Assembly: GCA_947650365.1 (NCBI GenBank)
Contig: CANTAL010000099.1
Coordinates: forward strand, 186,001 to 250,000
DNA length: 64,000 bases
Direction: 5' to 3'
Origin: Chamaelirium japonicum
Lineage: Eukaryota; Streptophyta; Magnoliopsida; Liliales; Melanthiaceae
A program made the position numbers and the translations under genes. Of the stretch, positions 1-64,000 are shown in pieces. Below the pieces are notes generated by a model. The model made no database searches, was not told where the DNA came from, and was given only the letters and a program-made list of their open reading frames with translations. Position 1 is the first letter of the stretch, and each line of letters starts with the position of its first letter.

Positions 1-146
1 ACGATCCATTCTAATTCATTCGTACGATCCATTCTAATTCATTCGCACGATCCATTGAATTAGAATGGATACATTCGTGCGAATCCATTCTTTTTCATTC
101 GTACGATCCATTCTAATTCATTCGCACGATCCATTCTAATTCATTC
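1..146. repeat. Short R-F-R mosaic at window start
   Basis: Units read R at 1-57, F at about 58-80, then R at 81-146. The F-to-R switch at 81 is a class A dyad (GTGCGAATCC), here followed by a CTTTTTC variant instead of the usual CTATTTC. The window opens inside an R unit, so the array continues to the left. Confidence 0.85.
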
Positions 147-1905
147 GAATGAATTAGAATGGATCGTACGAATGAATTAGAATGGATCGTATGAATGAAT
201 TAGAATGGATCGTATGAATGAATTAGAATGGATCGTACGAATGAATTAGAAAGGATACATTCGTGCGAATGAATTAGAATGGATCGTATGAGTGTGAATG
301 AATTAGAATGGATCGTGCGAATGAATTAGAATGGATTGTACGAATGAATTTGTATGGATCGTACGAATGAAATAGAATCGATCGTATGAATGAATTAGAA
401 TGAATCGTACGAATGAAATAGAATGGATTCGCACGAATGAATTAGAATGGATCGTTCGAATGAATTAGAATAGATTGTGCGAATGAATTAGAATGGATCG
501 TACGAATGAATTAGAAAGGATATATTCGTGCGAATGAATTAGAATAGATCGTATGAATGAATTAGATTGGATCGTATTAATAAATTAGAATGGATTGTGC
601 GAATGAATTAGAATGGATCGTACGAATGAATTAGAATGGATACATTCGTGCGAATGAATTAGAATGGATCGTATGAATGAATTAGAATCGATCGTACGAA
701 TGAATTAGAATGGATCATGCGAATGAATTAAAATGGATCGTGCGAATGAATTAGAATGGATCGTACGAATGAAATAGAATGGATTGTACGAATGAGATAG
801 AATGGATCGTACGAATGAATTAGAATGGATACATTTATGCGAATGAATTAGAATGGATCATACGAATGAATTAGAATGGATCATACGAATGAATTAGAAT
901 GGATTCATTCGTGCGAATGAATTAGAATGGATCTTACGAATGAGTAAGAATGGATCGTACGAATGAATTAGAATGGATAGAATTAGAATGAATCGTACGA
1001 ATGAATTAGAATGGATCGTACGAATGAATTAGAATGGATCGTACGAATGAATTAGAATGAATCGTACGAATGAATTAGAATGGATTGTATGAATGAATTA
1101 GATTGGATCGTATTAATGAATTAGAATGGATCGTGTGAATGAATTAGAATTGATCGTACGAATGAATTAGAATGGATCGTACGAATGACTTAAAATGGAT
1201 CATTCGAATGAATTAGAATAGATTGTGTGAATGAATTAGAATGGATAGTACGAATGAATTAGAATGGATACCTTCATGCAAATGAATTAGAATGGATCGT
1301 ACGAATGAGTAAGAATGGATCGTACGAATGAAATAGAATGGATCGTATGAATGAATTAGAATGGATCGTACGAAGGAATTAGAATGGATAGTACGAATGA
1401 ATTACAATGGATACCTTCGTGCAAATGAATTAGAATGGATCGTACGAATGAGTAAGAATGGATCGTACGAATGAAATAGAATGGATCGTATGAATGAATT
1501 AGAATGGATAGTGCGAATGAATTAGAATGGATCGTACGAATGAATTAGAATAGATTGTGCGAATGAATTAGAATGGATCGTGCGAATGAATTAGAATGGA
1601 TCGTACGAATAAATTAGAATGGATACCTTCGTGCAAATGAATTAGAATGGATCGTACGAATGAGTAAGAATGGATCGTACGAATGAAATAGAATGGATCG
1701 TATGAATGAATTACAATGGATCGTGCGAATGAATTAGAATGGATCGTACGAATGAATTAGAATAGATTGTGCGAATGAATTAGAATGGATCGTACGAATG
1801 AATTAGAATGGATCGTACGAATGAATTAGAATGGATCGTATGAATGAATTAGAATGGATCGTGCGAATGAATTAGAATGGATCGTACGAATGAAATAGAA
1901 TGGAT
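147..1905 (+). repeat. F block, 1.76 kb
   Basis: Head-to-tail units on the + strand. The block contains three closely spaced copies of the CCTTCGTGCAAATG-type marker (1271, 1414, 1626) and several 28-bp units (for example near 245, 640 and 825). It ends at the class A dyad at 1903, with the marker CAAA ending exactly 270 bp before the dyad GGATTC, so the right end is an alpha module. Confidence 0.9.
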
Positions 1906-2190
1906 TCGCACGAATGTATCCATTCTAATTCATTCGTACGATCCATTCTATCTCATTCGTACAATCCATTCTATTTCATTCGTACGATCCATTCTAATTC
2001 ATTCATACGATCCATTCTAATTTATTCGCACGAACCATTGTAATTCATTCATACGATCCATTCTAATTCATTCATATGATTCATTCTAATTCATTCGCAC
2101 GATCCATTCTAATTCATTCGTACGATCCATTCTAATTCATTCGCACGATCCATTCTAATTCATTCGCACGATCCATTCTAATTCATTCGT
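1906..2190 (-). repeat. R block, 0.29 kb
   Basis: Units on the - strand between the class A dyad at 1903 and a perfect palindrome centred at 2190/2191 (CATTCGT then ACGAATG), where orientation returns to F. Confidence 0.88.
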
Positions 2191-4905
2191 ACGAATGAAT
2201 TAGAATAGATCGTACGAATGAATTAGAATGGATACGAATGGATCGTACGAATGAGTAAGAATGGATCGTACGAATGAAATAGAATGGATTGTACGAATGA
2301 ATTAGAATGGATCATACGAATGAATTAGAATGGATTCATTCGTGCGAATGAATTAGAATGGATCGTACGAATGAGTAAGAATGGATCATACGAATGAAAT
2401 AGAATGGATCGTACGAATGGATCGTACGAATGAATTAGAATGGATTGAATTAGAATAAATCGTACGAATGAATTAGAATGAATCATACGGTACGAATGAA
2501 TTAGAATGGATCATACGAAGGAATTAGAATGGATCGTACGAATGAATTAGAATGGATCGTACGAATGAATTAGAATGGATCGTACGAAGGAATTAGAATG
2601 GATCGTACGAAGGAATTAGAATGGATAGTACGAATGAATTAGAATGGATACCTTCGTGCAAATGAATTAGAATGGATCGTACGAATGAGTAAGAATGGAT
2701 CGTACGAATGAATTAGAATGGATCGTGCGAATGAATTAGAATGGATCGTACGAATGAATTAGAATAGATTGTGCGAATGAATTAGATTGGATCGTACGAA
2801 TGAATTAGAATGGATCGTACGAATGAATTAGAATGGATCGTGCGAATGAATTAGAATGGATCGTACGAATGAAATAGAATGGATTCGCACGAATGAATTA
2901 GAATGGATCGTTCGAATGAATTAGAATAGATTGTGCGAATGAATTAGAATGGATCGTACGAATGAATTAGAAAGGATATATTCGTGCGAATGAATTACGT
3001 GCGAATGAATTAGAAAGGATATATTCGTACGAATGAATTAGAATGGATTGAATTAGAATGAATCATACGATTGAATTAGAATGAATCGTACGAATGAATT
3101 AGAATGGATCGTACGAATGAATTAGAATGGATCGTACGAATGAATTAGAATGGATTGAATTAGAATGAATCGTACGAATGAATTAGAATGAATCATACCG
3201 TATGAATGAATTAGAATGGATCATACGAAGGAATTAGAATGGATCGTACGAATGAATTAGAATGGTTCGTACGAATGAATTAGAATGGATCGTACGAAGG
3301 AATTAGAATGGATCGTACGAAGGAATTAGAATGTATAGTACGAATGAATTAGAATGGATACCTTCGTGCAAATGAATTAGAATGGATCGTACGAATAAGT
3401 AAGAATGGATCGTACGAATGAAATAGAATGGATCGTATGAATGAATTAGAATGGATCGTGCGAATGAATTAGAATGGATCGTACGAATGAATTAGAATAG
3501 ATTGTGCGAATGAATTAGAATGGATCATACGAATGAATTAGAATGGATCGTATGAATGAATTAGAATGGATCGTGCGAATGAATTAGAATGGATCGTACG
3601 AATGAAATAGAATGGATACATTCGTGCGAATGAATTAGAATGGATCAAATGAATGAATTAGAATGGATCGTTTGAATGAATGCGAATGGATCGTGCGAAT
3701 GAATTAGAATGAATTAGAATGGATCGTACGAATGAATTAGAATGGATCATGCGAATGAATTTGAATGGATCGTGCGAATGAATTAGAATGGATCGTATTA
3801 ATGAATTAGAATGGATCGTGCGAATGAATTAGAATGGATCGTACGAATGAGTAAGAATGGATCGTGCGAATGAAATAGAATGGATCGTATGAATGAATTA
3901 GATTGGATCGTATTAATGAATTAGAATGGATCGTGCGAATGAATTAGAATGGATCGTACGAATGAATTAGAATGGATTGAATTAGAATGAATCGTACGAA
4001 TGAATTAGAATGAATCATACCGTACGAATGAATTAGAATGGATCATACGAAGGAATTAGAATGGATCGTACGAATGAATTAGAATGGATCGTATGAATGA
4101 ATTAGAATGGATCGTACGAAGGAATTAGAATGGATCGTACGAAGGAATTAGAATGGATAGTACGAATGAATTAGAATGGATACCTTCGTGCAAATGAATT
4201 AGAATGGATCGTACGAATGAGTAAGAATGGATCGTACGAATGAAATAGAATAGATCTTATGAATGAATTAGAATGGATCGTGCGAATGAATTAGAATGGA
4301 TCGTACGAATGAATTAGAATAGATTGTGCGAATGAATTAGAATGGATCGTACGAATGAATTAGAATGGATCGTATGAATGAATTAGAATGGATCGTGCGA
4401 ATGAATTAGAATGGATCGTACGAATGAAATAGAATGGATTCGCACGAATGTATCCGAATGGATCGTACGAAGGAATTAGAATGGATCGTACGAAGGAATT
4501 AGAATGGATAGTACGAATGAATTAGAATGGATACCTTCATGCAAATGAATTAGAATGGATCGTACGAATGAGTAAGAATGGATCGTACGAATGAAATAGA
4601 ATGGATCGTATGAATGAATTAGAATGGATCGTGCGAATGAATTAGAATGGATCGTACGAATGAATTAGAATAGATTGTGCGAATGAATTAGAATGGATCG
4701 TACGAATGAATTAGAATGGATCGTACGAATGAATTAGAATGGATCGTATGCATGAATTAGAATGGATCGTGCGAATGAATTAGAATGGATCGTACTAATG
4801 AATTAGAATGGATCGTACGAAGGAATTAGAATGGATCGTATGAATGAATTAGAATGGATCGTGCGAATGAATTAGAATGGATCGTACGAATGAAATAGAA
4901 TGGAT
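2191..4905 (+). repeat. F block, 2.7 kb
   Basis: F units throughout, including repeated markers CCTTCGTGCAAATG (2651, 3361, about 4183, 4533) and units shortened around GATTGAATTAG. At 4437-4455 a class A sequence is present but orientation does not change after it, a junction scar. From about 2426 this block belongs to the first copy of the 3758-bp duplication. It ends at a variant class A dyad at 4903 (CGAACGCATCC). Confidence 0.9.
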
Positions 4906-6183
4906 TCGCACGAACGCATCCATTCTAATTCATTCGTACGATCCATTCTAATTCATTCGTACAATCCATTCTAATTCATTCGCACGATCCATTCGCATTC
5001 ACTCAAACGATCCATTCTAATTCATTCATATGATCCATTCTAATTCATTCGCACGAATGTATCCATTCTAATTCATTCGTACGATCCATTCTAATTCATT
5101 TGTACGAATGTATCAACTCTAATTCATTCATACGATCCATTCTAATTCATTTGTACGAATGTATCCACTCTAATTCATTCGTACGAATGAATTAGAATGG
5201 ATCGTATGAGTGTGAATGAATTAGAATGGATCGTGCGAATGAATTAGAATGGATCGTGTTAATGAATTAGAATAGATCGTATGAATGGATCGTACGAATG
5301 AAATAGAATGGATCGTATGAATGAATTAGAATGGATCGTGCGAATGAATTAGAAAGGATCGTACGAATGAATTAGAATAAATTGTGCGAATGAATTAGAA
5401 TGCATCATACGAATGAATTAGAATGGATCGTACGAATGAATTAGAATGGATCGTATGTATGAATTAGAATGGATCGTGCGAATGAATTAGAATGGATCGT
5501 ACGAATGAATTAGAATGGATCGTACGAAGGAATTAGAATGGATCGTACGAATGAATTAGAAAGGATACATTCGAATTCATTCGTACGATCCATTCTAATT
5601 CCTTCGTACGATCCATATTCTAATTCATTCGCACGATCCATTCTAATTCATTCGCACAATCCTTTCTAATTCATTCATACGATCCATTCTAATTCATTCA
5701 CACAATCCATTCTAATTCATTCTAATTTGTATGAATGAATTAGAATGGATCGTGCGAATGAATTAGAATGGATCGTACGAATGAATTAGAATAGATTGTG
5801 CGAATGAATTAGAATGGATCGTACGAATGAATTATAATGGATCGTACGAATGAATTAGAATGGATCGTATGCATGAATTAGAATGGATCGTGCGAATGAA
5901 TTAGAATGGATCGTACGAATGAATTAGAATGGATCGTACGAATGAATTAGAATGGATCGTACGAATGAATTAGAAAGGATACATTCGAATTCATTCGTAC
6001 GATCCATTCTAATTCCTTCGTACGATCCATATTCTAATTCATTCGCACGATCCATTCTAATTCATTCGCACGATCCATTCTAATTCATTCGTACGATCCA
6101 TTCTTACTCATCGTATGCATGAATTAGAATGGATCGTGCGAATGAATTAGAATGGATCGTACGAATGAATTAGAATGGATCGA
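2426..6183 (+). repeat. 3758-bp tandem duplication, copy 1
   Basis: Landmarks recur downstream at a constant offset of 3758 bp: GATTGAATTAGAATAAAT at 2443 and 6201, CGAACGCATC at 4911 and 8669, CCTTCGTGCA at 3361 and 7119. Rare private variants (AATGGTTCG, GAATGTATAG, AATCCTTTC) are shared by both copies, and I saw no difference in the lines compared. The join lies within the shared ACGAATGAATTAGAATGGAT at copy starts and ends, as expected from unequal exchange between units. Confidence 0.92.
4906..6110. repeat. Mosaic of short R and F blocks
   Basis: Blocks are R 4906-5182, F 5183-5572, R 5573-5728, F 5729-5986 and R 5987-6110. The F-to-R switches at 5573 and 5987 are both class B (AAAGGATACATTC then GAATTC). 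The R-to-F switch at 5182/5183 is a perfect palindrome. The rare CACTCAAACGATCC variant near 5001 links the first R block to R blocks at 11.9, 51.2 and 63.4 kb. Confidence 0.87.
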
Positions 6184-9100
6184 ACGAATGAATTAGAATG
6201 GATTGAATTAGAATAAATCGTACGAATGAATTAGAATGAATCATACGGTACGAATGAATTAGAATGGATCATACGAAGGAATTAGAATGGATCGTACGAA
6301 TGAATTAGAATGGATCGTACGAATGAATTAGAATGGATCGTACGAAGGAATTAGAATGGATCGTACGAAGGAATTAGAATGGATAGTACGAATGAATTAG
6401 AATGGATACCTTCGTGCAAATGAATTAGAATGGATCGTACGAATGAGTAAGAATGGATCGTACGAATGAATTAGAATGGATCGTGCGAATGAATTAGAAT
6501 GGATCGTACGAATGAATTAGAATAGATTGTGCGAATGAATTAGATTGGATCGTACGAATGAATTAGAATGGATCGTACGAATGAATTAGAATGGATCGTG
6601 CGAATGAATTAGAATGGATCGTACGAATGAAATAGAATGGATTCGCACGAATGAATTAGAATGGATCGTTCGAATGAATTAGAATAGATTGTGCGAATGA
6701 ATTAGAATGGATCGTACGAATGAATTAGAAAGGATATATTCGTGCGAATGAATTACGTGCGAATGAATTAGAAAGGATATATTCGTACGAATGAATTAGA
6801 ATGGATTGAATTAGAATGAATCATACGATTGAATTAGAATGAATCGTACGAATGAATTAGAATGGATCGTACGAATGAATTAGAATGGATCGTACGAATG
6901 AATTAGAATGGATTGAATTAGAATGAATCGTACGAATGAATTAGAATGAATCATACCGTATGAATGAATTAGAATGGATCATACGAAGGAATTAGAATGG
7001 ATCGTACGAATGAATTAGAATGGTTCGTACGAATGAATTAGAATGGATCGTACGAAGGAATTAGAATGGATCGTACGAAGGAATTAGAATGTATAGTACG
7101 AATGAATTAGAATGGATACCTTCGTGCAAATGAATTAGAATGGATCGTACGAATAAGTAAGAATGGATCGTACGAATGAAATAGAATGGATCGTATGAAT
7201 GAATTAGAATGGATCGTGCGAATGAATTAGAATGGATCGTACGAATGAATTAGAATAGATTGTGCGAATGAATTAGAATGGATCATACGAATGAATTAGA
7301 ATGGATCGTATGAATGAATTAGAATGGATCGTGCGAATGAATTAGAATGGATCGTACGAATGAAATAGAATGGATACATTCGTGCGAATGAATTAGAATG
7401 GATCAAATGAATGAATTAGAATGGATCGTTTGAATGAATGCGAATGGATCGTGCGAATGAATTAGAATGAATTAGAATGGATCGTACGAATGAATTAGAA
7501 TGGATCATGCGAATGAATTTGAATGGATCGTGCGAATGAATTAGAATGGATCGTATTAATGAATTAGAATGGATCGTGCGAATGAATTAGAATGGATCGT
7601 ACGAATGAGTAAGAATGGATCGTGCGAATGAAATAGAATGGATCGTATGAATGAATTAGATTGGATCGTATTAATGAATTAGAATGGATCGTGCGAATGA
7701 ATTAGAATGGATCGTACGAATGAATTAGAATGGATTGAATTAGAATGAATCGTACGAATGAATTAGAATGAATCATACCGTACGAATGAATTAGAATGGA
7801 TCATACGAAGGAATTAGAATGGATCGTACGAATGAATTAGAATGGATCGTATGAATGAATTAGAATGGATCGTACGAAGGAATTAGAATGGATCGTACGA
7901 AGGAATTAGAATGGATAGTACGAATGAATTAGAATGGATACCTTCGTGCAAATGAATTAGAATGGATCGTACGAATGAGTAAGAATGGATCGTACGAATG
8001 AAATAGAATAGATCTTATGAATGAATTAGAATGGATCGTGCGAATGAATTAGAATGGATCGTACGAATGAATTAGAATAGATTGTGCGAATGAATTAGAA
8101 TGGATCGTACGAATGAATTAGAATGGATCGTATGAATGAATTAGAATGGATCGTGCGAATGAATTAGAATGGATCGTACGAATGAAATAGAATGGATTCG
8201 CACGAATGTATCCGAATGGATCGTACGAAGGAATTAGAATGGATCGTACGAAGGAATTAGAATGGATAGTACGAATGAATTAGAATGGATACCTTCATGC
8301 AAATGAATTAGAATGGATCGTACGAATGAGTAAGAATGGATCGTACGAATGAAATAGAATGGATCGTATGAATGAATTAGAATGGATCGTGCGAATGAAT
8401 TAGAATGGATCGTACGAATGAATTAGAATAGATTGTGCGAATGAATTAGAATGGATCGTACGAATGAATTAGAATGGATCGTACGAATGAATTAGAATGG
8501 ATCGTATGCATGAATTAGAATGGATCGTGCGAATGAATTAGAATGGATCGTACTAATGAATTAGAATGGATCGTACGAAGGAATTAGAATGGATCGTATG
8601 AATGAATTAGAATGGATCGTGCGAATGAATTAGAATGGATCGTACGAATGAAATAGAATGGATTCGCACGAACGCATCCATTCTAATTCATTCGTACGAT
8701 CCATTCTAATTCATTCGTACAATCCATTCTAATTCATTCGCACGATCCATTCGCATTCACTCAAACGATCCATTCTAATTCATTCATATGATCCATTCTA
8801 ATTCATTCGCACGAATGTATCCATTCTAATTCATTCGTACGATCCATTCTAATTCATTTGTACGAATGTATCAACTCTAATTCATTCATACGATCCATTC
8901 TAATTCATTTGTACGAATGTATCCACTCTAATTCATTCGTACGAATGAATTAGAATGGATCGTATGAGTGTGAATGAATTAGAATGGATCGTGCGAATGA
9001 ATTAGAATGGATCGTGTTAATGAATTAGAATAGATCGTATGAATGGATCGTACGAATGAAATAGAATGGATCGTATGAATGAATTAGAATGGATCGTGCG

Positions 9101-9941
9101 AATGAATTAGAAAGGATCGTACGAATGAATTAGAATAAATTGTGCGAATGAATTAGAATGCATCATACGAATGAATTAGAATGGATCGTACGAATGAATT
9201 AGAATGGATCGTATGTATGAATTAGAATGGATCGTGCGAATGAATTAGAATGGATCGTACGAATGAATTAGAATGGATCGTACGAAGGAATTAGAATGGA
9301 TCGTACGAATGAATTAGAAAGGATACATTCGAATTCATTCGTACGATCCATTCTAATTCCTTCGTACGATCCATATTCTAATTCATTCGCACGATCCATT
9401 CTAATTCATTCGCACAATCCTTTCTAATTCATTCATACGATCCATTCTAATTCATTCACACAATCCATTCTAATTCATTCTAATTTGTATGAATGAATTA
9501 GAATGGATCGTGCGAATGAATTAGAATGGATCGTACGAATGAATTAGAATAGATTGTGCGAATGAATTAGAATGGATCGTACGAATGAATTATAATGGAT
9601 CGTACGAATGAATTAGAATGGATCGTATGCATGAATTAGAATGGATCGTGCGAATGAATTAGAATGGATCGTACGAATGAATTAGAATGGATCGTACGAA
9701 TGAATTAGAATGGATCGTACGAATGAATTAGAAAGGATACATTCGAATTCATTCGTACGATCCATTCTAATTCCTTCGTACGATCCATATTCTAATTCAT
9801 TCGCACGATCCATTCTAATTCATTCGCACGATCCATTCTAATTCATTCGTACGATCCATTCTTACTCATCGTATGCATGAATTAGAATGGATCGTGCGAA
9901 TGAATTAGAATGGATCGTACGAATGAATTAGAATGGATCGA
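6184..9941 (+). repeat. 3758-bp tandem duplication, copy 2
   Basis: Second copy, directly adjoining the first with no bases between. It carries the same order of F and R blocks: F to 8663, R 8664-8940, F to 9328, R to 9486, F to 9744, R to 9868, then F. Similarity stops after 9961, where copy 1 has TGGATTGAATT and this copy has TGGATACATTCG. Near-identity means either a recent duplication or an assembly artefact. Confidence 0.92.
8664..9868. repeat. Mosaic of short R and F blocks, second copy
   Basis: Same five blocks as at 4906-6110, shifted by 3758 bp, with class B dyads (GAATTC) at 9331 and 9745. Confidence 0.87.
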
Positions 9942-10190
9942 ACGAATGAATTAGAATGGATACATTCGTGCAAAAGAATTAGAATGGATTGTATGAATGA
10001 ATTAGAATGGATCGTGCGAATTAATTAGAATGGATCGTACGAATGAATTAGAACGGATACATTCGTGCGAAAGAATTAGAATAGATCGTATGAATGAATT
10101 AGAATGGATCTTATGAATGAAATAGAATGGATCGTACGAATGAATTAGAATGGATCGTACGAAGGAATTAGAATAGATCGTACGAATGAA
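9869..10190 (+). repeat. F block, 0.32 kb
   Basis: Begins GTATGCATGAATTAG and contains GTGCAAAAGAATTAG. The same series of variants recurs at 18476-18850 and 52170-52550, so this is one of three dispersed copies. It ends at a class B dyad (GAATTC at 10188). Confidence 0.87.
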
Positions 10191-10422
10191 TTCGAATGTA
10201 TCCTTTCTAATTCATTCGTACGATCCATTCTAATTCCTTCGTACGATCCATTCTAATTCATTCGTACGATCCATTCTAATTCATTCGCACGATCCATTCT
10301 AATTCATTCGTACGATCCATTCTATTTCATTCATACGATCCATTCTAATTCATTCATACGATCTATTCTAATTCTTTCGCACGAATGTATCCATTCTAAT
10401 TCATTCGTACGATCCATTCTAA
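10191..10422 (-). repeat. R block, 0.23 kb
   Basis: Follows a class B dyad and starts like the R blocks at 21.4, 25.1, 31.3 and 53.6 kb (GTATCCTTTC), but switches to F early at a CTAATTAG palindrome centred at 10422/10423, so the class E junction is absent. Confidence 0.86.
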
Positions 10423-11199
10423 TTAGAATAGATCGTATGAATGAATTAGAATGGATCATGCGAATGAATTAGAATGGATCATACGAATGAATTAGAATGG
10501 ATTCATTCGTGCGAATGAATTAGAATGGATCGTACGAATGAGTAAGAATGGATTGTACGAATGAATTAGAATGGATTGAATTAGAATGAATCGTACGAAT
10601 GAATTAGAATGGATCGTACGAATGAATTAGAATGGATCGTACGAATGAATTAGAATGGATTGAATTAGAATGAATCGTACGAATGAATTAGGATGAATCA
10701 TACCGTACGAATGAATTAGAATGGATCATACGAAGGAATTAGAATGGAACGTACGAATGAATTAGAATGGATCGTATGAATGAATTAGAATGGATCGTAC
10801 GAATGAAATAGAACAGATCGTACGAATGAATTAGAATGGATCGTACGAATGAATTAGAATGGATACATTCGTGCGAATGAATTAGAATGGATAGTACGAA
10901 TGAATTAGAATGGATACCTTCGTGCAAATGAATTAGAATGGATCGTACGAATGAGTAAGAATGGATCGTACGAATGAAATAGAATGGATCGTATGAATGA
11001 ATTAGAATGGATCGTGCGAATGAATTAGAATGGATCGTACGAATGAATTAGAATAGATTGTGCGAATGAATTAGAATGGATCGTACGAATGAATTAGAAT
11101 GGATCGTACGAATGAATTAGAATGGATCGTATGAATGAATTAGAATGGATCGTGCGAATGAATTAGAATGGATCGTACGAATGAAATAGAATGGATTCG
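10423..11199 (+). repeat. F block, 0.78 kb
   Basis: F units with GATTGAATTAG-type short units near 10575 and 10658 and the GAATCATACC marker near 10694. The right end is an alpha module in F orientation: marker CAAA ends at 10928, class A GGATTC ends at 11198, spacing 270 bp. Confidence 0.87.
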
Positions 11200-11486
11200 C
11201 ACGAATGTATCCATTCTAATTCATTCGTACGATCCATTCTAATTCATTCGCACGATACATTCTAATTCATTTGCACGAATGTACCCATTCTAATTCATTC
11301 GTACGATCCATTCTAATTTATTCGTACGTTCCATTCTAATTCATTCGTAAGATCCATTCTAATTCATTGATACGATCTATTCTAATTCATTCATACAATC
11401 CATTCTAATTCCTTCGTACGATCCTTTCTAATTCATTCGTACGATCCATTCTAATTCATTCGTACTATCCATTCTTACTCATTCGT
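11200..11486 (-). repeat. R block, 0.29 kb
   Basis: Between a class A dyad (11194) and a switch back to F inside TTACTCATTCGTACGAAGG. Confidence 0.86.
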
Positions 11487-18309: not shown

Positions 18310-18399
18310 AACTCTAATTCATACGATCCATTCTAATTCATTCGCACGAATGTATCAACTCTAATTCATTCGTACGATCCATTCTAATTCATTCATACA
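18310..18399 (-). repeat. Short R block
   Basis: About 90 bp of R units between an unclassified join and the class E junction (ACATGT at 18397). Confidence 0.82.
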
Positions 18400-49900: not shown

Positions 49901-49940
49901 ACGATCCATTCTAATTCATTTATACGATCCAATCTAATTC
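49861..49940. repeat. 80-bp near-perfect palindrome
   Basis: The 40-bp arms 49861-49900 and 49901-49940 are reverse complements with one mismatch (ATTAATG against ATAAATG). The centre is GGATCGT then ACGATCC. It is one of the four F-to-R switches that do not use class A, B or C. Confidence 0.92.
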
Positions 49941-53440: not shown

Positions 53441-54044
53441 ACATACGAATAAATTAGAATGAATTAGAATGGATTGTGTGAATGAATTAGAATGGATCGT
53501 ATGAATGAATTAGAATGGATCGTACGAATGAATTAGAATATGGATCGTACGAAGGAATTAGAATGGATCGTACGAATGAATTCGAATGTATCCTTTCTAA
53601 TTCATTCGTACGATCCATTCTAATTCCATCGTACGATCCATTCTAATTCATTCGTACGATCCATTCTAATTCATTCGCACGATCCATTCTAATTCATTCG
53701 TATGATCCATTCTATTTCATTCATACGATCCATTCTAATTCATTCATACGATCTATTCAAATTCTTTCGCACGAATGTATCCATTCTAATTCATTCGTAC
53801 GATCCATTCTAATTCATTTGCACGATCTATTCTAATTCATTCATATAATCCATTCTAATTCTTTTGCACGAATGTATCCATTCTAATTCATTCGTTCGAT
53901 CCATTCTAATTCATTCGTACGATCCATTCTAATTCATTCGCACGATCCATTCTAATTCATGCATATGATCCAATCTAATTCATTCATACGATCCATTCTA
54001 ATTCATTCACACGAATGTATCCATTCTAATTCATTCGTACATGT
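53423..54044. repeat. Complete beta module D-B-E, short form
   Basis: Class D A6 at 53423-53428, class B GAATTC at 53578-53583, class E ACATGT at 54039-54044. Spacing is 155 and 461 bp. F from D to B, R from B to E. Confidence 0.9.
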
Positions 54045-55004
54045 ATGAATGAATTAGAATGGATCGTACAAATGAATTAGAGTTGATACATTCGTGCGAA
54101 TGAATTAGAATGGATCGTACGAATGAATTAGATTGGATCGTATGAATGAATTATAATGGATCATGCGAATGAATTAGAATAGATCATACGAATGAATTAG
54201 AATGGATCGTACGAATGAATTAGAATGGATACATTCGTGCAAAAGAATTAGAATGGATTGTATGAATGAATTAGAATGGATCGTGCGAATGAATTAGAAT
54301 CGATACATTCGTGCGAATGAATTAGAATGGATCGTATGAATGAATTAGATTGGATCGTATGAATGAATTAGAATGGATCGTATGAATGAATTAGAATGGA
54401 TCATACGAATGAATTAGAATGGATCGTATGAATGAATTAGAATGGATTGTACGAATGAATTAGAATGGATCGTTTGAATGAATTAGAATGGATCGTACTT
54501 ATGAATTAGAATGGGTCATACGAATGAAATAGAATGGATCATACGAAGGAATTAGAAAAGATCGTACAAATGAATTAGAATGGATCGTATGAATGAAATA
54601 GAATAGATCGTACGAATGAATTAGAATGGATCGTATGAATGAATTAGATTAGATCGTATGAATAAATTAGAATGGATTGTACGAATGAAATAGAATAGAT
54701 CGTACGAATGAAATAGAATGGATCGTATGAATGAATTAGAATAGATTGTGCGAATGGATTAGAATGGATCATACGATTGAGTAAGAATGGATTGTACGAA
54801 TGAAATAGATTAGATCGTACGAATGAATTTGAATGGATCGTATGAATGAATTAGAATGGATCGTGCGAATGAATTAGAATGGATCGTACGAATGAATTAG
54901 AATGGATCGTATGAATGAATTAGAATGGATCGTAGTAATGAATTAGAATGGATCCTACGAATGAATTAGAATAGATTGTGCGAATGAATTAGAATGGATC
55001 TGGA
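54045..55004 (+). repeat. F block, 0.96 kb
   Basis: Follows class E as at 31805, with GAGTTGATACATTCG and CATGCGAATG. It ends at a class C dyad (TGGATCTGGATCGTGT at 54995), with the preceding series matching that before 20383. Confidence 0.88.
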
Positions 55005-55752
55005 TCGTGTATCCATTTTAATTCATTCGTACGACCCATTCTAATTCATTCGCACGATCCATTCTAATTCATTCGTATGATCTATTCTATTTCATTCGTA
55101 AAATCCATTCTAATTCATTCATACGATCCAATCTAATTCATTCATACGATCCATTCTAATTCATTCGTACGATCTATTCTATTTCATTCATACGATCCAT
55201 TCTAATTCGTTTGTACGATCCTTTCTAATTCCTTCGTACGATCCATTCTATTTCATTCGTATGACCCATTCTAATTCATAAGTACGATCCATTCTAATTC
55301 ATTCAAACGATCCATTCTAATTCATTCGTACGATCCATTCTAATTCATTCGCACGATCCATTCTAATTCATTCATACGATCCAATCTAATTCATTCATAC
55401 GATCTATTCTAATTCATTCGCACGAATGTATCCATTCTAATTAATACACACGATCCATTCTAATTCATTCATACAATCCATTCTAATTCTTTTGCACGAA
55501 TGTATCCATTCTAATTCATTCGTACGATCCATTCTAATTCATTCATATGATCTATTCTATTTCATTCGCATGATCCATTATAATTCATTCATACGATCCA
55601 ATCTAATTCATTCGTACGATCCATTCTAATTCATTCGCACGAATGTATCAACTCAATCCATTCTAATTCATTCGTACGATCCATTCTTACTCATTCGTAC
55701 GATCCATTCTAATTCATTCGCACGAATGAAACCATTCTAATTCATTCGTATG
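55005..55752 (-). repeat. R block, 0.75 kb
   Basis: R units after class C, including ATAAGTACG and ATTCAAACG near 55280 and an eroded GTATCAACTCAATCC unit near 55650. It ends at CGTATGTCGTACG. Confidence 0.86.
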
Positions 55753-57314
55753 TCGTACGAATGAATTAGAATGGATCGTGCGAATGAATAAGAATGGATC
55801 GTACGAATGAATTAGAATGGATCATACGAAGGAATTAGAATGGATCGTACGAATGAATTAGAAAGGATACATTCGAATTCATTCGTACGATCCATTCTAA
55901 TTCCTTCGTACGATCCATATTCTAATTCATTCGCACGATCCATTCTAATTCATTCATACGATCCATTCTAATTTATTCGCACGATCGATTCTAATTCATT
56001 CGTACGATCCATTCTAATTCATTCGCACGATCCATTCTAATTCATTCGTACGATCCATTCTAATTCATTCGCACAATCTATTCTAATTCATTCGTACGAT
56101 CCATTCTAATTCATTCGCACGATCCATTCTAATTCATTCATACGATCCATTCTATTTCATTCGTACGATCCATTCTTACTCATTCGTACGATCCATTCTA
56201 ATTCATTTGCACGAAGGTATCCATTCTAATTTATTCGTACGATCCATTCTAATTCATTCGTACGATTCATTCTAATTCACTCCATTCTAATTCATTCGTA
56301 CGATCCATTCTTACTCATTCGTACGATCCATTCTAATTCATTCGCACGAATGAATCCATTCTAATTCATTCGTATGATCCATTCTAATTCATTCGCATGA
56401 ATGTATCCATTCTCATTCATTCGTACGATCCATTCTATCTCATTCGTACAATCCATTCTATTTCATTCGCACGATCCATTCTAATTCATTCGCACAATCC
56501 ATTCTAATTCATTCGTACGATCCATTCTAATTCATTCGTACGATTCATTCTAATTCAATCCATTCTAATTCATTCGTACGATCCATTCTTACTCATTCGT
56601 ACGATCCATTCTAATTCATTCATACGATCCAATTAATTCATTCATACGATCCATTCAAATTCATTAATACGATCCAATCTAATTCATTCATACGATCCAA
56701 TCTAATTCGTGCGAGTGAATTAGCATTGATCGTGCTAATGAATTAGAATGGAACGTACGAATGAATTAGAATGGATCGTAGAATGGATCGTATGAATGAA
56801 TTAGATTGGATCGTACGAATGAGTAAGAATGGATCATACGAATGAAATTGAATGGATCGTACGTATCAATTAGAATGGATACATTCATGGGAATGAATTA
56901 GAATGGATCGTACGAAGGAATTAGAATGGATCGTACGAAGGAATTAGAATGGATAGTACGAATGAATTAGAATGGATACCTTCGTGCAAATGAATTAGAA
57001 TGGATCGTACGAATGAGTAAGAATGGATCGTACGAATGAAATAGAATGGATCGTATGAATGAATTAGAATGGATCGCGTGAATGAATTAGAATGGATCGT
57101 ACGAATGAATTAGAATAGATTGTGTGAATGAATTAGAATGGATCGCACGAATGAATTAGAATGGATCGTACGAATGAATTAGAATGGATCGTATGAATGA
57201 ATTAGAATGGATCGTACGAATGAATTAGAATGGATCGTATGAATGAATTAGAATGGATTGTACGAATGAATTAGAATGGATCGTACGAATGAATTAGAAT
57301 GGATACATTCGTGC
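55753..57314. repeat. F-R-F blocks
   Basis: F 55753-55874 ends at class B (GAATTC at 55875). R 55875-56708 carries TTTGCACGAAGG near 56208 and a truncated CACTCCATTC unit, and ends in a run of diverged AATCTAATTC units. F 56709-57314 starts with a diverged GTGCGAGTGAATTAG and ends at class A (57315). Confidence 0.85.
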
Positions 57315-58254
57315 GAATCCATTCTATTTCATTCGTACGATCCATTCTAATTCATTCGCACGATCCATTCTAATTCATTCATACGATCCATTCTAATTCA
57401 TTCGTACGATCCATTCTAATTCATTCATACGATCCATTCTAATTCATTCGTACGATCCATTCTAATTCATTCGCACAATCTATTCTAATTCATTCGTACG
57501 ATCCATTCTAATTCATTCGCACGATCCATTCTAATTCATTCATACGATCCATTCTATTTCATTCATACGGTCCATTCTTACTCATTCGTACGATCCATTC
57601 TAATTCATTTGCACGAAGGTATCCATTCTAATTCATTCGTACTATCCATTCTAATTCCTTCGTACGATCCATTCTAATTCCTTCGTACGATCCATTCCAA
57701 TTCATTCTAATTCTAATTCATTCGCACGAATGTATCCATTCTAATTCATTCATACGATCCATTTTAATTCATTCATACGAACCATTCTAATTCATTGATA
57801 TGATCCATTCTAATTCATTCGCACGATCCATTCTTACTCATTCGTACGATCCATTCTAATTCATTCGCATGATCCATTCTAATTCATTAATACTATCCAT
57901 TCTAATTCATTCGCACGATCCATTCTAATTCATTCACACTCATACGATCCATTCTAATTCATTCGCACGAATGTATCCTTTCTAATTCATTCGTACGATC
58001 CATTCTAATTCATTCGCACTATCTATTCTAATTCATTCGAACGATCCATTCTAATTCATTCGTACGATCCATTCTAATTCATTCGTAGGATCTATTCTAA
58101 TTTATTCGCACGATCCATTCTAATTCATTAGCACGATCCATTCTAATTCATTCGTACGATCCATTCTAATTCATTAATACGATCCATTCTAATTCATTCG
58201 CACGAATGTATCCATTCTAATTCATTAATACGATCCAATCTAATTCATTCATAC
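57315..58254 (-). repeat. R block, 0.94 kb (long alpha module)
   Basis: Class A at 57315 and TTTGCACGAAGG at 57608, 293 bp, exactly one unit longer than the 270-bp form. CACACTCATACG near 57935 is followed by further R units instead of class D. Confidence 0.87.
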
Positions 58255-60795
58255 GAATGAATTAGAATGGATACATTCATGCAAAACAAATAAAATGGAT
58301 TGTATGAATGAATAAGAATGGATCGTGTGAATGAATTAGAATGGATCATACGAATGAATTAGAATGGATACATTCGTGCGAATGAATTAGAATGGATCGT
58401 GCGAATGAATTAGAATGGATCGTACGAATGAATTAGAATGGATCGTACGAATGAATTAGAATGGATCGTGCGAATGAATTAGAATGGATCGTAAGAATGA
58501 ATTAGAATGGATCGTATGAATGAATTAGATTGGATCGTATTAATGAATTAGAATGGATCGTACGAATAAATTAGAATAGATCGTACGAATGAATTAGAAT
58601 GGATACGAATGGATCGTACGAATGAGTAAGAATGGATCGTACGAATGAAATAGAATGGATTGTACGATTGAATTAGAATGGATATATTCGTGCGAATGAA
58701 TTCGGATAAATAAATCGTACGGATGAAATAGAATAGATCGTACGGATAAATAAATTTGGATCGTGCTAATGAATTAGAATGGATCGTACGAATGAATTAG
58801 AATGGATCGTACTAATGAATTAGAATAGATTGTGCGAATGAATTAGAATAGATCGTACGAATGAATTAGAAAGGATATATTCGTGCGAATGAATTAGAAT
58901 AGATCGTATGAATGAATTAGATTGGATCGTATTAATGAATTAGAATGGATCATGCGAATGAATTAGTATGGATCGTACGAATGAATTAGAATGGATAGAT
59001 TCGTGCGAATGAATTAGAATGGATCATATGAATGAATTAGAATGGATCGTACGAATGAATGCGAATGGATCGTGCGAATGAATTAGAATGGATTGTACGA
59101 AGAATTAGAATGGATCGTACGAATGAATTAGAATAGATTGTGCGAATGAATTAGAATGGATCGTACGAATGAATTTAAATGGATAAATTCGTGCAAATGA
59201 ATTAGAATGGATTGTATGAATGAATTAGATTGGATCGTATAAATGAATTAGAATGGATCGTACGAATGAATTAGAATAGATCGTACGAATAAATTAGAAT
59301 GGATACGAATGGATCGTACGAATGAGTAAGAATGGATCGTACGAATGAAATAGAATGGATTGTACGAATGAATTAGAATGGATACATTCGTGCGAATGAA
59401 TTAGGACGGATCGTATGAATGAATTAGAATAGATTGTGCGAATGAATTAGAATGGATCGTACGAATGAATTAGAATGGATACATTCATGCGAATGGATTA
59501 GAATGGATCGTATGAATGAATTAGAATGGATCGTATGAGTGAATTAGAATGGATACGAAGGAATTAGAATGGATCATACGAAGGAATTAGAATGGAGAAT
59601 GGATCGTGCGAATGAATTAGAATGGATCGTGCGAAAAGAATGGATCGTACGAATGAAATAGAATAGATCGTACGGATAAATGAATTTGGATCGTGCTAAT
59701 GAATTAGAATGGATCGTACGAATGAATTAGAATGGATCGTACTAATGAATTAGAATAGATTGTGCGAATGAATTAGAATGGATCATACGAATGAATTAGA
59801 AAGGATATATTCGTGTAAATGAATTTGAATAGATCGTATGAATGAATTAGATTGGATCGTATTAATGAATTAGAATGGATCGTGCGAATGAATTAGAATG
59901 GATCGTGCGAATGAATTAGAATGGATCGTACGAATGAATTAGAATCGATCGTACGAATGAATTAGAATGGATCATGCGAATGAATTAGAATGGATCGTGC
60001 GAATGAATTAGAATGGATCGTACGAATGAAATAGAATGGATTGGACGAATGAGATAGAATGGATCGTACGAATGAATTAGAATGGATACATTCATGCGAA
60101 TGAATTAGAATGGATCATACGAATGAATTAGAATGGATTCATTCGTGGGAATGAATTAGAATGGATCGTACGAATGAGTAAGAATGGATCGTACGAATGA
60201 ATTAGAATGGATTGAATTAGAATGAATCGTACGAATGAATTAGAATAGATCGTACGAATGAATTAGAATGGATTGAATTAGAATTAATCGTACGAATGAA
60301 TTAGAATAAATCATACCGTACGAATGAATTAGAATGGATCATACGAAGGAATTAGAATGGATCGTACGAATGAATTAGAATGGATCGTACGAATGAATTA
60401 GAATGGATCGTACGAAGGAATTAGAATGGATCGTACGAAGGAATTAGAATGGATAGTACGAATGAATTAGAATGGATACCTTTGTGCAAATGAATTAGAA
60501 TGGATCGTACGAATGAGTAAGAATGTATCGTACGAATGAAATAGAATGGATCGTATGAATGAATTAGAATGGATCGTGCGAATGAATTAGAATGGATCGT
60601 ACGAATGAATTAGAATAGATGGTGCGAATGAATTAGAATGGATCGTACGAATGAATTAGAATGGATCGTACGAATGAATTAGAATGGATCGTATGAATGA
60701 ATTAGAATGGATCATGCGAATGAATTAGAATGGATCGTACGAATGAATTAGAATATGGATCGTACGAAGGAATTAGAATGGATCGTACGAATGAA
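58255..60795 (+). repeat. F block, 2.5 kb
   Basis: Two copies of a GGATACGAATGGATCG series at 58601 and 59301 (offset 700) and of AAGGATATATTCGTG at 58871 and 59801 (offset 930), plus irregular truncated units near 58700 and 59545-59690. It ends at class B (GAATTC at 60793). Confidence 0.89.
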
Positions 60796-62749
60796 TTCGA
60801 ATGTATCCTTTCTAATTCATTCGTACGATCCATTCTAATTCCTTCGTACGATCCATTCTAATTCATTCGTACGATCCATTCTATTTCATTCATACGATCC
60901 ATTCTAATTCATTCATACGATCTATTCTAATTCTTTTGCACGAATGTATCCATTCTAATTTATTCGTACGATCCATTCTAATTCATTCGCACGATCTATT
61001 CTAATTCATTCATACAATCCATTCTAATTCTTTTGCACGAATGTATCCATTCTAATTCATTCGTTCGATCCATTCTAATTCCTTCGTACGATCCATTCTA
61101 ATTCATTCGCACGATCCATTCGAATTCACTCAAACGATCCATTCTAATTCATTCATATGATCCATTCTAATTCATTCGCACGAATGTATCCATTCTAATT
61201 CATTCGTACGATCAATTCTAATTCATTTGTACGAATGTATCCACTCTAATTCATTCATACGATCCATTCTAATTCATTCGCACGAATGTATCCATTCCAA
61301 TTCATTCGTACGATCCATTCTAATTCATTCGCACAATCTATTCAAATTCATTCGTACGATCAATTCTAATTCATTAGCATGATCCATTCTAATTCATTCG
61401 TACGATCTATTCTATTTCATTCGTACAATCCATTCTTACTCAATCGTATGATCCATTCTAATCAATTCGCACAATCTATTCAAATTCATTCGTACGATCC
61501 ATTCTATTTTATTCGTACGATCCATTCTAATTCATACGATCCATTCTATTTCATTCATACGATCCATTTTAATTCATTTGCACGATCCATTCTAATTCAT
61601 TCGTACGATCCATTCTATTTCATTCGTACGATCCATTCTAATTCATACGATCCATTCTATTTCATTCATACGATCCATTTTAATTCATTCGCACGATCCA
61701 TTCTAATTCATTCATACGATCCATTCTAATTCATTCGTACGATCCATTCTAATTTCTTCGTATGATCAATTCTAATTCCTTCGTACGATCCATTCTAATT
61801 CCTTCGTACGATCCATTCAAATTCATTCGCACGAATCTATCCATTCTAATTCATTCGTACGATCCATTCTAATTCATTCGCACGATCCATTCTAATTCAT
61901 TAATACGATCCAACCTAATTCATTCATGCGATCTATTCTAATTCATTTGCACGAATATATCCTTTCTAATTCATTCGTACGATCCATTCTAATTCATTCG
62001 CACAATCTATTCTAATTCATTAGTACGATCCATTCTAATTCATTCGTACGATCCATTCTAATTCATTAGCACGATCCAAATTCATTTATCCGTACGATCT
62101 ATTCTATTTCATTCGTACGATCCATTCTTATCGCACGATCCATTCTAATTCATTCGCACGATCCATTCTCCATTCTAATTCCTTCGTACGATCCATTCTA
62201 ATTCCTTCATACGATCCATTCTAATTCATTCGTACGATCCATTCTAATTCATTCGTACGATCCATTCTAATTCCTTCGTATGATCCATTCTAATTCATTC
62301 GTACGGTATGATTCATTCTAATTCATTCGTACGATTCATTCCAATTCAATCCATTCTAATTCATTCGTACGATCCATTCTAATTCATTTGTACGATCCAT
62401 TCTAATTCATTCGTACGATCCAATCTAATTCATTTGTACGATCCATTCTAATTCATTCGTACGATTCATTCTAATTCAATCCATTCTAATTCATTCGTAC
62501 GATCCATTACTCATTCGTACGATCCATTCTAACTCATTCGCACGAATGAATCCATTCTAATTCATTCGTATGATCCATTCTAATTCATTCGTATGAATGT
62601 ATCGATTCTAATTCATTCGTACGATCCATTCTATCTCATTCGTACAATCCATTCTATTTCATTCGTACGATCCATTCTAATTCATTCGCACGATCCATTC
62701 TAAGTCATTCGCACGATCTATTCTAATTCATTAGCACGATCATTCATAC
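60796..62749 (-). repeat. R block, 1.95 kb
   Basis: Starts at class B without a class E 461 bp later. It contains CACTCAAACG near 61130, the longest stop-poor series (61379-61729) with a 111-bp internal duplication, truncated units near 62075-62170, and GGTATGATTC at about 62307. Confidence 0.89.
61501..61722 (-). repeat. 111-bp tandem duplication
   Basis: ATTCTATTTT at 61501 and ATTCTATTTC at 61612 start two copies of a five-unit series that includes one 19-bp unit (4 x 23 + 19 = 111). Since 111 is a multiple of three, the copy does not change the reading frame of the repeat translation. Confidence 0.88.
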
Positions 62750-63355
62750 GAATGAATTAGAATGTATCGTATGAATGAATTAGAATGGATCATATGAATG
62801 AATTAGAATGGATTGTACGAATGAAATAGAATAGATCGTACGAATGAATTAGAATGGATCGTGCGAATGAATTAGAATGGATCGTGCGAATGAATTAGAA
62901 TGGATCGTACGAATGAATTAGAATGGATCGTATGAATGAATTAGAATGGACCATACGAATGAATTAGAATGGATGCATTCGGGTGAATGAATTAGAATGG
63001 ATCGTGCGAATGAATTAGAATGGATCGTACGAAGGAATTAGAATGGATCGTACGAAGGAATTAGAATGAATACCTTCGTGCAAATGAATTAGAATGGATC
63101 GTACGAATGAGTAAGAATGGATTGTACGAATGAAATAGAATGGATCGTATGAATGAATTAGAATGGATCGTGCGAATGAATTAGAATGGATCGTACGAAT
63201 GAATTAGAATAGATTGTGCGAATGAATTAGATTGGATCGTACGAATGAATTAGAATGGATCGTACGAATGAATTAGAATGGATCGTATGAATGAATTAGA
63301 ATGGATCGTGCGAATGAATTAGAATGGATCGTACGAATGAAATAGAATGGATTCG
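62750..63355 (+). repeat. F block, 0.6 kb (alpha module at right)
   Basis: Marker CAAA ends at 63084 and class A GGATTC ends at 63354, 270 bp. Confidence 0.88.
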
Positions 63356-64000
63356 CACGAATGTATCCATTCTAATTCATTCGTACGTTCGATTCTAATT
63401 CAATCGTACAATCCATTCTAATTCATTCGCACGATCCATTCGCATTCACTCAAACGATCCATTCTAATTCATTCATATGATCCATTCTAATTCATTCGCA
63501 CGAATGTATCCATTCTAATTCATTCGTACGATCCATTCTAATTCATTTGTACGAATGTATCCACTGTAGTTTATTCATACGATCCATTCTAATTCTTTCG
63601 CACGAATGTATCCATTCCAATTCATTCGTACGATCTATTCTAATTCATTCGCACAATCTATTCTAATTCATTCGTACGATCTATTCTAATTCATTAGCAT
63701 GATCCATTCTAATTCATTCGTACGATCTATTCTATTTCATTCGTACAATCCATTCTTACTCAATCGTATGATCCATTCTAATCCATTCGCACAATCTATT
63801 CTAATTCATTCGTACGATCCATTCTATTTCATTCGTACGATCCATTCGAATTCATACAATCCATTATATTTCATTCATACGATCCATTTTAATTCATTCG
63901 CACGATCCATTCTAATTCATTCATACGATCCATTCTAATTCATTCGTACGATCCATTCTAATTTCTTCGTATGATCTATTCTAATTCCTTCGTACGATCC
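63356..64000 (-). repeat. R block running off the window
   Basis: Repeats the series of 51164-51780 (CACTCAAACG near 63445, stop-poor series at 63699-63938). The window ends inside a unit, so the array continues to the right. Confidence 0.88.

What the first reader, a model, noticed from the sequence alone, without database searches (positions are those of the whole stretch)
1..64000. F-to-R switches use three conserved dyads, R-to-F switches are mostly private
I count 42 switches of each kind. Of the F-to-R switches, 38 are class A (81, 14964, 22558, 28641, 36047, 39710, 43307, 47563, 48490, 57315 one way; 1903, 4903, 8661, 11194, 11831, 24363, 33859, 44825, 51158, 63350 the other), class B (5573, 5987, 9331, 9745, 16471, 18858, 20857, 52557, 55875; 10188, 21425, 25124, 31338, 53578, 60793) or class C (20383, 28036, 54995). 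Only 14 of 42 R-to-F switches recur outside the 3758-bp duplication. If inversions arose at random, both kinds should be equally diverse. I infer that a few tail-to-tail dyads were founded once and then amplified with flanking units, while R-to-F joins form repeatedly by recombination between amplified palindromic units.
Basis: partly seen in the sequence, partly recalled or inferred. Interest (0 to 1): 0.72.

Follow-up and report, generated by a model that had tools for sequence, protein, structure and literature searches.

The report
Lopsided strand switches in satellite DNA
A 23-bp satellite repeat in a large, probably plant, genome flips strand every few hundred bases; in four of five stretches sampled the flips of one kind are copies of three founders while flips of the other kind are far more varied, but a stretch on another chromosome does not follow this rule.

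Summary
My parse finds 41 F-to-R and 41 R-to-F switches plus the tiny piece at 57-75, i.e. 42/42. Of 42 F-to-R switches 38 are class A (20), B (15) or C (3). At 8-12% distance the window has 6-7 F-to-R and 21-27 R-to-F clusters. With the C111 flanks, C10, C12 and C2 pooled: 18 against 65 clusters of 195 each at 12%. C12 alone is not significant.

It is not a law of the satellite. A C1 stretch has no A, B or C among 10 F-to-R switches and about equal cluster numbers. Genome-wide, simple palindromic joins of both kinds run to thousands.

Best reading: two satellite dialects. In one, three tail-to-tail joins, all carrying the GGATACA unit variant, were copied everywhere; B and C keep pieces of cassettes. 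R-to-F joins kept being made, 23-30% of types at 4 bp or more of microhomology against 7.6% of random joins. Arms of a switch are no more alike than arms of different switches, which argues against fresh fold-backs and read artefacts. Why new joins are mostly R-to-F is inferred, not shown.

The parts
1..64000 (.). 23-bp satellite array, F unit GAATGAATTAGAATGGATCGTAC, alternating F and R runs
67..90 (+). F-to-R dyad class A
   Evidence: exact core
1898..1921 (-). F-to-R dyad class A
   Evidence: exact core
4898..4921 (-). F-to-R dyad class A
   Evidence: 2 edits
5560..5582 (+). F-to-R dyad class B
   Evidence: exact core
5974..5996 (+). F-to-R dyad class B
   Evidence: exact core
8656..8679 (-). 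F-to-R dyad class A (tandem-duplicate copy of 4898-4921)
   Evidence: 2 edits
9318..9340 (+). F-to-R dyad class B (duplicate copy)
   Evidence: exact core
9732..9754 (+). F-to-R dyad class B (duplicate copy)
   Evidence: exact core
10184..10206 (-). F-to-R dyad class B
   Evidence: exact core
11189..11212 (-). F-to-R dyad class A
   Evidence: exact core
11826..11849 (-). F-to-R dyad class A
   Evidence: 1 edit
14950..14973 (+). F-to-R dyad class A
   Evidence: exact core
16458..16480 (+). F-to-R dyad class B
   Evidence: exact core
18845..18867 (+). F-to-R dyad class B
   Evidence: exact core
20382..20400 (-). F-to-R dyad class C
   Evidence: exact core
20844..20866 (+). F-to-R dyad class B
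   Evidence: exact core
21421..21443 (-). F-to-R dyad class B
   Evidence: exact core
22544..22567 (+). F-to-R dyad class A
   Evidence: exact core
24358..24381 (-). F-to-R dyad class A
   Evidence: exact core
25120..25142 (-). F-to-R dyad class B
   Evidence: exact core
28036..28054 (+). F-to-R dyad class C
   Evidence: exact core
28627..28650 (+). F-to-R dyad class A
   Evidence: exact core
31334..31356 (-). F-to-R dyad class B
   Evidence: exact core
33854..33877 (-). F-to-R dyad class A
   Evidence: 1 edit
36033..36056 (+). F-to-R dyad class A
   Evidence: exact core
39696..39719 (+). F-to-R dyad class A
   Evidence: exact core
43293..43316 (+). F-to-R dyad class A
   Evidence: exact core
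44820..44843 (-). F-to-R dyad class A
   Evidence: 1 edit
47549..47572 (+). F-to-R dyad class A
   Evidence: exact core
48476..48499 (+). F-to-R dyad class A
   Evidence: 1 edit
51153..51176 (-). F-to-R dyad class A
   Evidence: exact core
52544..52566 (+). F-to-R dyad class B
   Evidence: exact core
53574..53596 (-). F-to-R dyad class B
   Evidence: exact core
54996..55014 (-). F-to-R dyad class C
   Evidence: exact core
55862..55884 (+). F-to-R dyad class B
   Evidence: exact core
57301..57324 (+). F-to-R dyad class A
   Evidence: exact core
60789..60811 (-). F-to-R dyad class B
   Evidence: exact core
63345..63368 (-). F-to-R dyad class A
   Evidence: exact core
18299..18323 (.). F-to-R switch outside the classes (midpoint 18311)
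32757..32781 (.). F-to-R switch outside the classes (midpoint 32769)
49889..49913 (.). F-to-R switch, simple CGTACG palindrome join (midpoint 49901)
   Evidence: sequence; no class
50217..50240 (-).
16646..16664 (+). recurrent R-to-F join 'polyT' (GTGTTTTTTCGTGCTAATG)
19033..19051 (+). recurrent R-to-F join 'polyT'
21009..21027 (+). recurrent R-to-F join 'polyT'
24913..24931 (-). recurrent R-to-F join 'polyT'
31150..31168 (-). recurrent R-to-F join 'polyT'
53413..53431 (-). recurrent R-to-F join 'polyT'
18390..18409 (.). recurrent R-to-F join 'TACATGTA'
21879..21898 (.). recurrent R-to-F join 'TACATGTA'
25578..25597 (.). recurrent R-to-F join 'TACATGTA'
31792..31811 (.). recurrent R-to-F join 'TACATGTA'
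54032..54051 (.). recurrent R-to-F join 'TACATGTA'
31150..31811 (-). example of the class B cassette: polyT R-to-F, about 175 bp, B dyad, 452 bp, TACATGTA R-to-F
2435..6184 (+). tandem duplication, copy 1 (3758-bp offset, 100% identical to copy 2 over 3750 bp)
6193..9942 (+). tandem duplication, copy 2

Best explanation
The window is part of a dispersed 23-bp satellite, which I estimate at some 50 Mb in this genome, that flips orientation every few hundred bases. The satellite has at least two dialects. In the A/B/C dialect (C111, C10, C12, C2) nearly all tail-to-tail (F-to-R) switches descend from three founder joins. All three apices carry GGATACA, the mark of a longer unit variant (GGATACATTCGTGCGAATGAATTAG) that already holds a short inverted stretch. 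The founders spread with a few units of flank, and in part of the B and C copies as small cassettes with their own R-to-F partner, by copying and unequal exchange within and between chromosomes. When a dyad-bearing stretch entered a run of the other context, its far end had to be joined to a run of opposite orientation. That join was made anew, often at short palindromic microhomology that reads the same in both orientations (CGTACG, GATC), so R-to-F joins are many; some of these were later copied in blocks (polyT most clearly). Shown: the counts, the classes, the flank decay, the cassettes, the microhomology excess, and the absence of A/B/C from the sampled C1 stretch. Inferred: homologous copying of dyads followed by microhomology-mediated joining, the age order, and the two-dialect history.
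For: Clusters 18 (F-to-R) against 65 (R-to-F) of 195 each in the four A/B/C blocks at 12% distance, 25 against 90 at 8%; with recent block copies collapsed (194 of each examined, 116 and 140 left) again 18 against 65 and 25 against 90. 178 of 195 F-to-R switches are A, B or C by fuzzy core. Exact cores genome-wide: A 13,395, B 4,379, C 4,516, with 0 in the reversed controls. Flank sharing within F-to-R classes stays above background for about 75-175 bp, more than the join itself, so the copies share descent. Cassettes: B followed by polyT at 152-199 bp in 13 of 39 and preceded by TACATGTA at 452 bp in 8 of 37; C followed by one R-to-F type at 52-53 bp in 12 of 45. GGATACA at the apex in 155 of 178 A/B/C switches, against 1 of 17 other F-to-R switches in the same arrays, 7 of 206 R-to-F switches and 306 of 3000 random windows. 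R-to-F overlap of 4 bp or more in 27 of 89 distinct types against 30 of 397 random joins, Fisher p 6e-8. Joins private although both flanks occur elsewhere as exact 45-mers: 48 of 194 R-to-F, 19 of 194 F-to-R, 26 of 400 control points.
Against: No donor-recipient pair of a recent dyad insertion was identified; beyond about 175 bp class A flanks are near background, so the copying step is not seen directly. The mechanism as stated is symmetric in principle and does not say why the copied join is F-to-R. The age contrast is weak: only polyT keeps high flank identity in most bins to 600 bp; TACATGTA keeps it for about 175 bp on one side and 325 on the other, and the other R-to-F clusters of 5 to 13 members fall to near background within about 75 bp, as the F-to-R classes do within 75-175 bp. 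C12 alone is not significant (p 0.12-0.48). 70-77% of R-to-F types have less than 4 bp of overlap, and their share of long inserts (39 of 194) is that of random joins (88 of 397), so there is no excess of filler. New F-to-R types in the A/B/C arrays show no overlap excess (3 of 25 types at 8%, against 45 of 397 random joins). In C1 neither kind dominates.
Confidence: 0.5

Rival explanations
1. Orientation-symmetric drift: inversions create both joins at equal rate, and unequal crossing-over by chance let three F-to-R classes take over.
For: There are only three large classes, so all three falling on one side is not a rare event by class count alone (two-sided 1 in 4, my reckoning). In C1 the sides are about equal. 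Genome-wide the simple palindromic joins are of the same order: 5,655 F-to-R against 4,823 R-to-F at CGTACG, 2,387 against 4,532 at GATC.
Against: In the simulation 0 of 150 samples of 195 switch pairs reach the observed ratio in four settings; the conditional test gives p 8e-11 at 12% and 2e-6 at 15%. Both assume independent classes and cover few settings; a burst of amplification was not modelled.
Confidence: 0.22
2. R-to-F palindromes are unstable: they break at their hairpins and are healed by end joining, so R-to-F joins turn over while F-to-R joins stay.
For: R-to-F joins are diverse and enriched for short overlaps; 48 of 194 have both flanks found elsewhere but a private join, against 19 of 194 for F-to-R and 26 of 400 control points. 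In the C1 stretch the predicted R-to-F hairpins are the stronger ones (-28.3 against -21.9 kcal/mol, n = 11 and 10).
Against: In the A/B/C arrays predicted DNA hairpins over +-40 bp are stronger at the conserved dyads (A mean -29.7, B -32.3 kcal/mol) than at R-to-F switches (-23.1), so instability should fall on the other side there; class C (-22.4) is an exception.
Confidence: 0.12
3. F-to-R dyads A, B and C are kept by selection or by a protein that binds them.
For: Very numerous, cores well conserved, strong dyad symmetry in A and B.
Against: No C1 place is listed for class B or C, and only 23 for A (the listings are capped and that left out minus-strand copies on C2, so this is indirect). 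None of the 10 F-to-R switches of the C1 stretch is A, B or C. Core sharing decays smoothly into the flanks. No transcript, protein or chromatin data.
Confidence: 0.06
4. Assembly or read artefact: fold-back reads or mis-joins create the switches.
For: One tandem duplication is 100% identical over 3750 bp; C12 holds a run of 500 N inside its array; raw reads were not available.
Against: Arms of one switch are no more alike than arms of different switches: 1 of 137 F-to-R and 9 of 144 R-to-F exceed the 95th percentile of cross comparisons, 0 and 3 the 99th, whereas a fold-back artefact should give near-identical arms. The same dyads recur on C111, C10, C12 and C2 and thousands of times in the assembly.
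Confidence: 0.07

Closest known systems
Satellite DNA arrays with orientation switches (for example centromeric and subtelomeric satellites of plants and animals; recalled)
   Same: Short tandem unit, two orientations, local duplication, several arrays per genome.
   Different: Here the two kinds of switch differ strongly in diversity, and one kind traces to three founders in four of the five blocks sampled.
Higher-order repeats of satellites (recalled, e.g. human alpha satellite)
   Same: Multi-unit blocks with fixed inner spacing are copied (B cassette 452 + about 175 bp; 3758-bp tandem duplication).
   Different: No fixed neighbours for class A: 47 and 41 different R-to-F neighbour types in 93 on the two sides.
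Microhomology-mediated end joining, alone or after homologous copying, in plants (recalled; search listing only)
   Same: Joins at short identical words, 4 bp or more in 23-30% of R-to-F types.
   Different: The overlap here is given by palindromic words inside the repeat unit; no repair experiment and no recent donor-recipient pair.

Membership tests
Satellite (tandem) DNA with inverted blocks | Head-to-tail short unit over many kilobases | tested here: met
   period 23, rows covering 146-64000 and most of 1-147
Satellite (tandem) DNA with inverted blocks | Both orientations within one array | tested here: met
   83 runs in 64 kb
Higher-order repeat | Long multi-unit period repeated head to tail through the array | tested here: not met
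   class A switches have no fixed spacing or partner; in the window one two-copy 3758-bp tandem duplication. No program for higher-order repeats was run.
Fold-back (snap-back) inverted duplication | Two arms of a switch near-identical as reverse complements | tested here: not met
   own arms no more alike than arms of different switches; an old fold-back whose arms have since changed is not excluded
Microhomology-mediated joining (R-to-F joins) | Excess of short identity at joins over random joins | tested here: met
   27 of 89 types against 30 of 397 random joins with 4 bp or more
Microhomology-mediated joining (R-to-F joins) | Dependence on the end-joining polymerase | not testable with these tools
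   needs mutants
Inverted-repeat transposon (MITE, Foldback) | Non-satellite body | tested here: not met
   class A, B and C dyads consist of satellite sequence, read by eye from the junction listing
Inverted-repeat transposon (MITE, Foldback) | Target-site duplication | not tested
   not searched for

The most novel reading that the evidence does not exclude
Tail-to-tail dyads built on the GGATACA unit variant act as self-propagating parts of the satellite: strand invasion in one arm copies through the hairpin dyad, and the growing end is captured elsewhere by palindromic microhomology, so that each copy makes one old F-to-R join and one new R-to-F join. This would drive both the spread and the strand flipping of the array, and the C1 dialect would be what the satellite looks like without it.
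Probability: 0.15. Interest if true: 0.7.

Novelty: new variant of a known kind. Interest (0 to 1): 0.42.

Why it matters
Orientation switches in satellites are easily put down to random inversion. If one kind of switch is inherited and the other made anew, the switches become markers of how arrays grow and spread between chromosomes, and the join sequences hint at the repair route that made them. A second dialect on C1 in the same genome gives an internal control.

Tried and rejected
Pattern-based flank profiles were dropped: the B pattern with two mismatches matched 4,077 places, mostly ordinary units, and the A pattern (103 places) took in false hits; the profiles were redone on cluster members (up to 250 pairs a class, 264-kb set without C2 and C1). 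A claim that class A dyads on C2 all lie on one strand was dropped: it came from a capped listing that left out minus-strand copies, and C2 sequence shows both orientations (12 against 6). One search ended in an error after its matrices had been saved; one search used them. Hairpin instability of R-to-F joins went against the idea in the A/B/C arrays and not in C1. Filler DNA at R-to-F joins: no excess over random joins.

Weak points of the counts: at least two of the 195 R-to-F calls in the A/B/C blocks have misplaced midpoints, one inside a 3.1-kb insertion (C111 block offset about 130416) and one in plain F sequence (offset 58421); one of 206 R-to-F switches could not be parsed for anatomy. 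C111 holds 13 runs shorter than 60 bp. The p values assume independent classes, and block copying breaks this; after collapse of recent copies the contrast stays. The in-run control was allowed to shift by up to 12 bp, so it is more lenient than the switch clusters. That all three founders carry GGATACA is a post hoc remark. The overlap null differs with method: 3.6% from the consensus, 7.6% from real runs; the latter is used.

Literature: full-text searches with the repeat's own words (0 papers), with head-to-head and tail-to-tail satellite terms (2 listed), inversion and strand-switch terms (7 listed), 23-bp palindromic subtelomeric satellite, microhomology and template switching (8 listed), strand annealing and end joining (11 found, 8 listed). 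Only listings were seen; no paper was opened. I saw no description of this asymmetry in those listings, which cover an open-licence library only.

Full report
What the window is. The 64 kb lie inside contig C111 (positions 186001-250000) of a 1.52-Gb genome. The genome is probably a plant: COX1 reads through without stops in the standard code (530-532 aa) on 59 contigs; the organism was not identified. The window is 23-bp satellite, F unit GAATGAATTAGAATGGATCGTAC. Copies were seen on C1, C2, C3, C6, C8, C9, C10 and C12 and on smaller contigs, in the capped listings at 1.65-4.4 Mb and 120.7-122.2 Mb of the 122.5 Mb of C2 as well as inside chromosomes. From 66 exact class A cores in 264 kb and 13,395 genome-wide I estimate about 50 Mb of the A/B/C dialect; this is a scaling, not a count.

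The observation. All 38 class assignments are confirmed: A is GGATACATTCGTGCGAATCCATTC (20 copies, 10 each way), B is AAAGGATACATTCGAATTCATTC (15; 9 and 6), C is GGATACACGATCCAGATCC (3). Clustered on 100 bp with both strands compared, the window has 9, 7, 6, 4 F-to-R clusters and 29, 27, 21, 16 R-to-F clusters at 5, 8, 12 and 15% distance. A set of 41 control points inside runs gave 37, 35, 25 and 18 clusters at the same thresholds with a more lenient distance, so it is the F-to-R side that is unusually uniform.

Other arrays. In four blocks (C111 164 kb including the window, C10 50 kb, C12 50 kb, C2 30 kb) there are 195 switches of each kind: 25 against 90 clusters at 8%, 18 against 65 at 12%, 12 against 41 at 15%. 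By block at 8%: C111 outside the window 14 against 42 of 79 each, C10 6 against 16 of 23 and 22, C12 7 against 13 of 24 and 25 (p 0.12), C2 7 against 19 of 28 each. By fuzzy core 178 of the 195 F-to-R switches are A (94), B (39) or C (45). Collapsing block copies that are at least 97% identical over 300 bp leaves 116 and 140 of the 194 examined of each kind and the same cluster numbers.

The exception. The 20 kb from C1 (2.44-2.46 Mb) have 10 F-to-R switches, none of them A, B or C, and 11 R-to-F switches, with 7 against 6 clusters at 8% and 5 against 5 at 12%. In the A/B/C blocks, 155 overlapping sets of 10 consecutive F-to-R switches had 2 to 6 clusters; 7 at 8% was never reached, 5 at 12% was reached in 11% of sets, so the C1 difference in cluster number is clear only at the tighter threshold, while the absence of A/B/C (0 of 10 against 178 of 195, Fisher p 3e-10) is clear. 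No C1 place is listed for B or C and 23 for A; the listings are capped and that is incomplete for the minus strand on C2, so this is supporting evidence only. Conversely, the R-to-F word ATTCGTACGATCGTACGAAT has its 50 listed sites all on C1 between 1.38 and 3.26 Mb, while its inner 18 bases occur exactly once in the C111, C10 and C12 blocks. Genome-wide, simple palindromic joins are abundant on both sides: at CGTACG 5,655 F-to-R and 4,823 R-to-F sites, at GATC 2,387 and 4,532; the AATT pair was not searched genome-wide. The polarity therefore belongs to a dialect and not to the repeat as such, on the evidence of one 20-kb counter-example.

Descent or repeated origin. Pairs within A, B or C stay above the satellite background (0.83-0.89 per 25-bp bin away from the anchor) for about 75-175 bp on each side and then join it. 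Among the recurrent R-to-F classes, polyT keeps high identity in most bins to 600 bp, TACATGTA for about 175 bp on one side and 325 on the other, and the other clusters of 5 to 13 members for about 75 bp or less. So polyT is a recent block copy, but the age contrast between the two kinds of switch is not clean. B and C have partners: B is followed by polyT at 152-199 bp in 13 of 39 and preceded by TACATGTA at 452 bp in 8 of 37; C is followed by one R-to-F type at 52-53 bp in 12 of 45; A has no fixed partner. The R-to-F cluster centred on CGTACG (13 members in the 264-kb set) shows little flank sharing, as expected of joins made more than once.

How the joins look. GGATACA stands at the apex of 155 of 178 A/B/C switches, against 1 of 17 other F-to-R switches in the same arrays, 7 of 206 R-to-F switches and 306 of 3000 random windows; 7.5-10.3% of GGAT words in the five blocks are part of GGATACA. 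Read by eye, the variant unit GGATACATTCGTGCGAATGAATTAG is a unit with a short stretch of R sequence inside; A and B share GGATACATTCG with it, C only GGATACA. R-to-F types have 4 bp or more of overlap in 27 of 89 cases (8% clusters) or 15 of 66 (12%) against 30 of 397 random joins; F-to-R types in the same arrays do not (3 of 25 against 45 of 397). Arms of one switch are not more alike than arms of different switches, so recent fold-back is not the source and fold-back read artefacts are unlikely. Hairpins are stronger at A and B than at R-to-F switches in these arrays, and the reverse in C1, which speaks against unstable R-to-F palindromes as the cause of the window's pattern.

Chance. An orientation-symmetric simulation with unequal exchange and inversion gave equal class numbers on average; 0 of 150 samples reached the pooled ratio and 0-2.5% of window-sized samples reached the window's ratio. 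I did not model bursts of amplification, and with three founders only, a historical accident remains possible; I give it 0.22.

Verdict. The step that would make it a mechanism, the copying of a dyad with one new join, is inferred.

Noticed in passing
window 2435-9942: Tandem duplication with 3758-bp offset, 100% identical over 3750 bp in a satellite whose background identity is about 86%: very recent, or an assembly duplication.
   Followed up: partly
L021 about 2057-8003 (C111 contig about 272057-278003): A 5.9-kb insertion in the array with a nearly identical 159-aa frame at both ends, 4655 bp apart, and a 427-aa frame matching Retrotrans_gag (PF03732, E 2.3e-8): looks like an LTR retrotransposon.
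   Followed up: partly
L019 about 4855-7970 (C111 contig about 254855-257970): A 3.1-kb non-satellite insertion, in which one R-to-F switch of the parse falls.
   Followed up: no
L030 about 1476-1975 (C12 contig about 14097477-14097976): A run of 500 N inside the satellite array: a scaffold gap or a withheld stretch.
   Followed up: no
G000, contigs C514 to C3216: Full-length COX1 hits of the same score on 59 small contigs: probably many unmerged mitochondrial contigs in the assembly.
   Followed up: no
C1 1.38-3.26 Mb: The R-to-F join word ATTCGTACGATCGTACGAAT has at least 50 sites here, two pairs of them exactly 1727 bp apart: possibly a recurrent R-to-F dyad, the mirror image of the window's case.
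   Followed up: no
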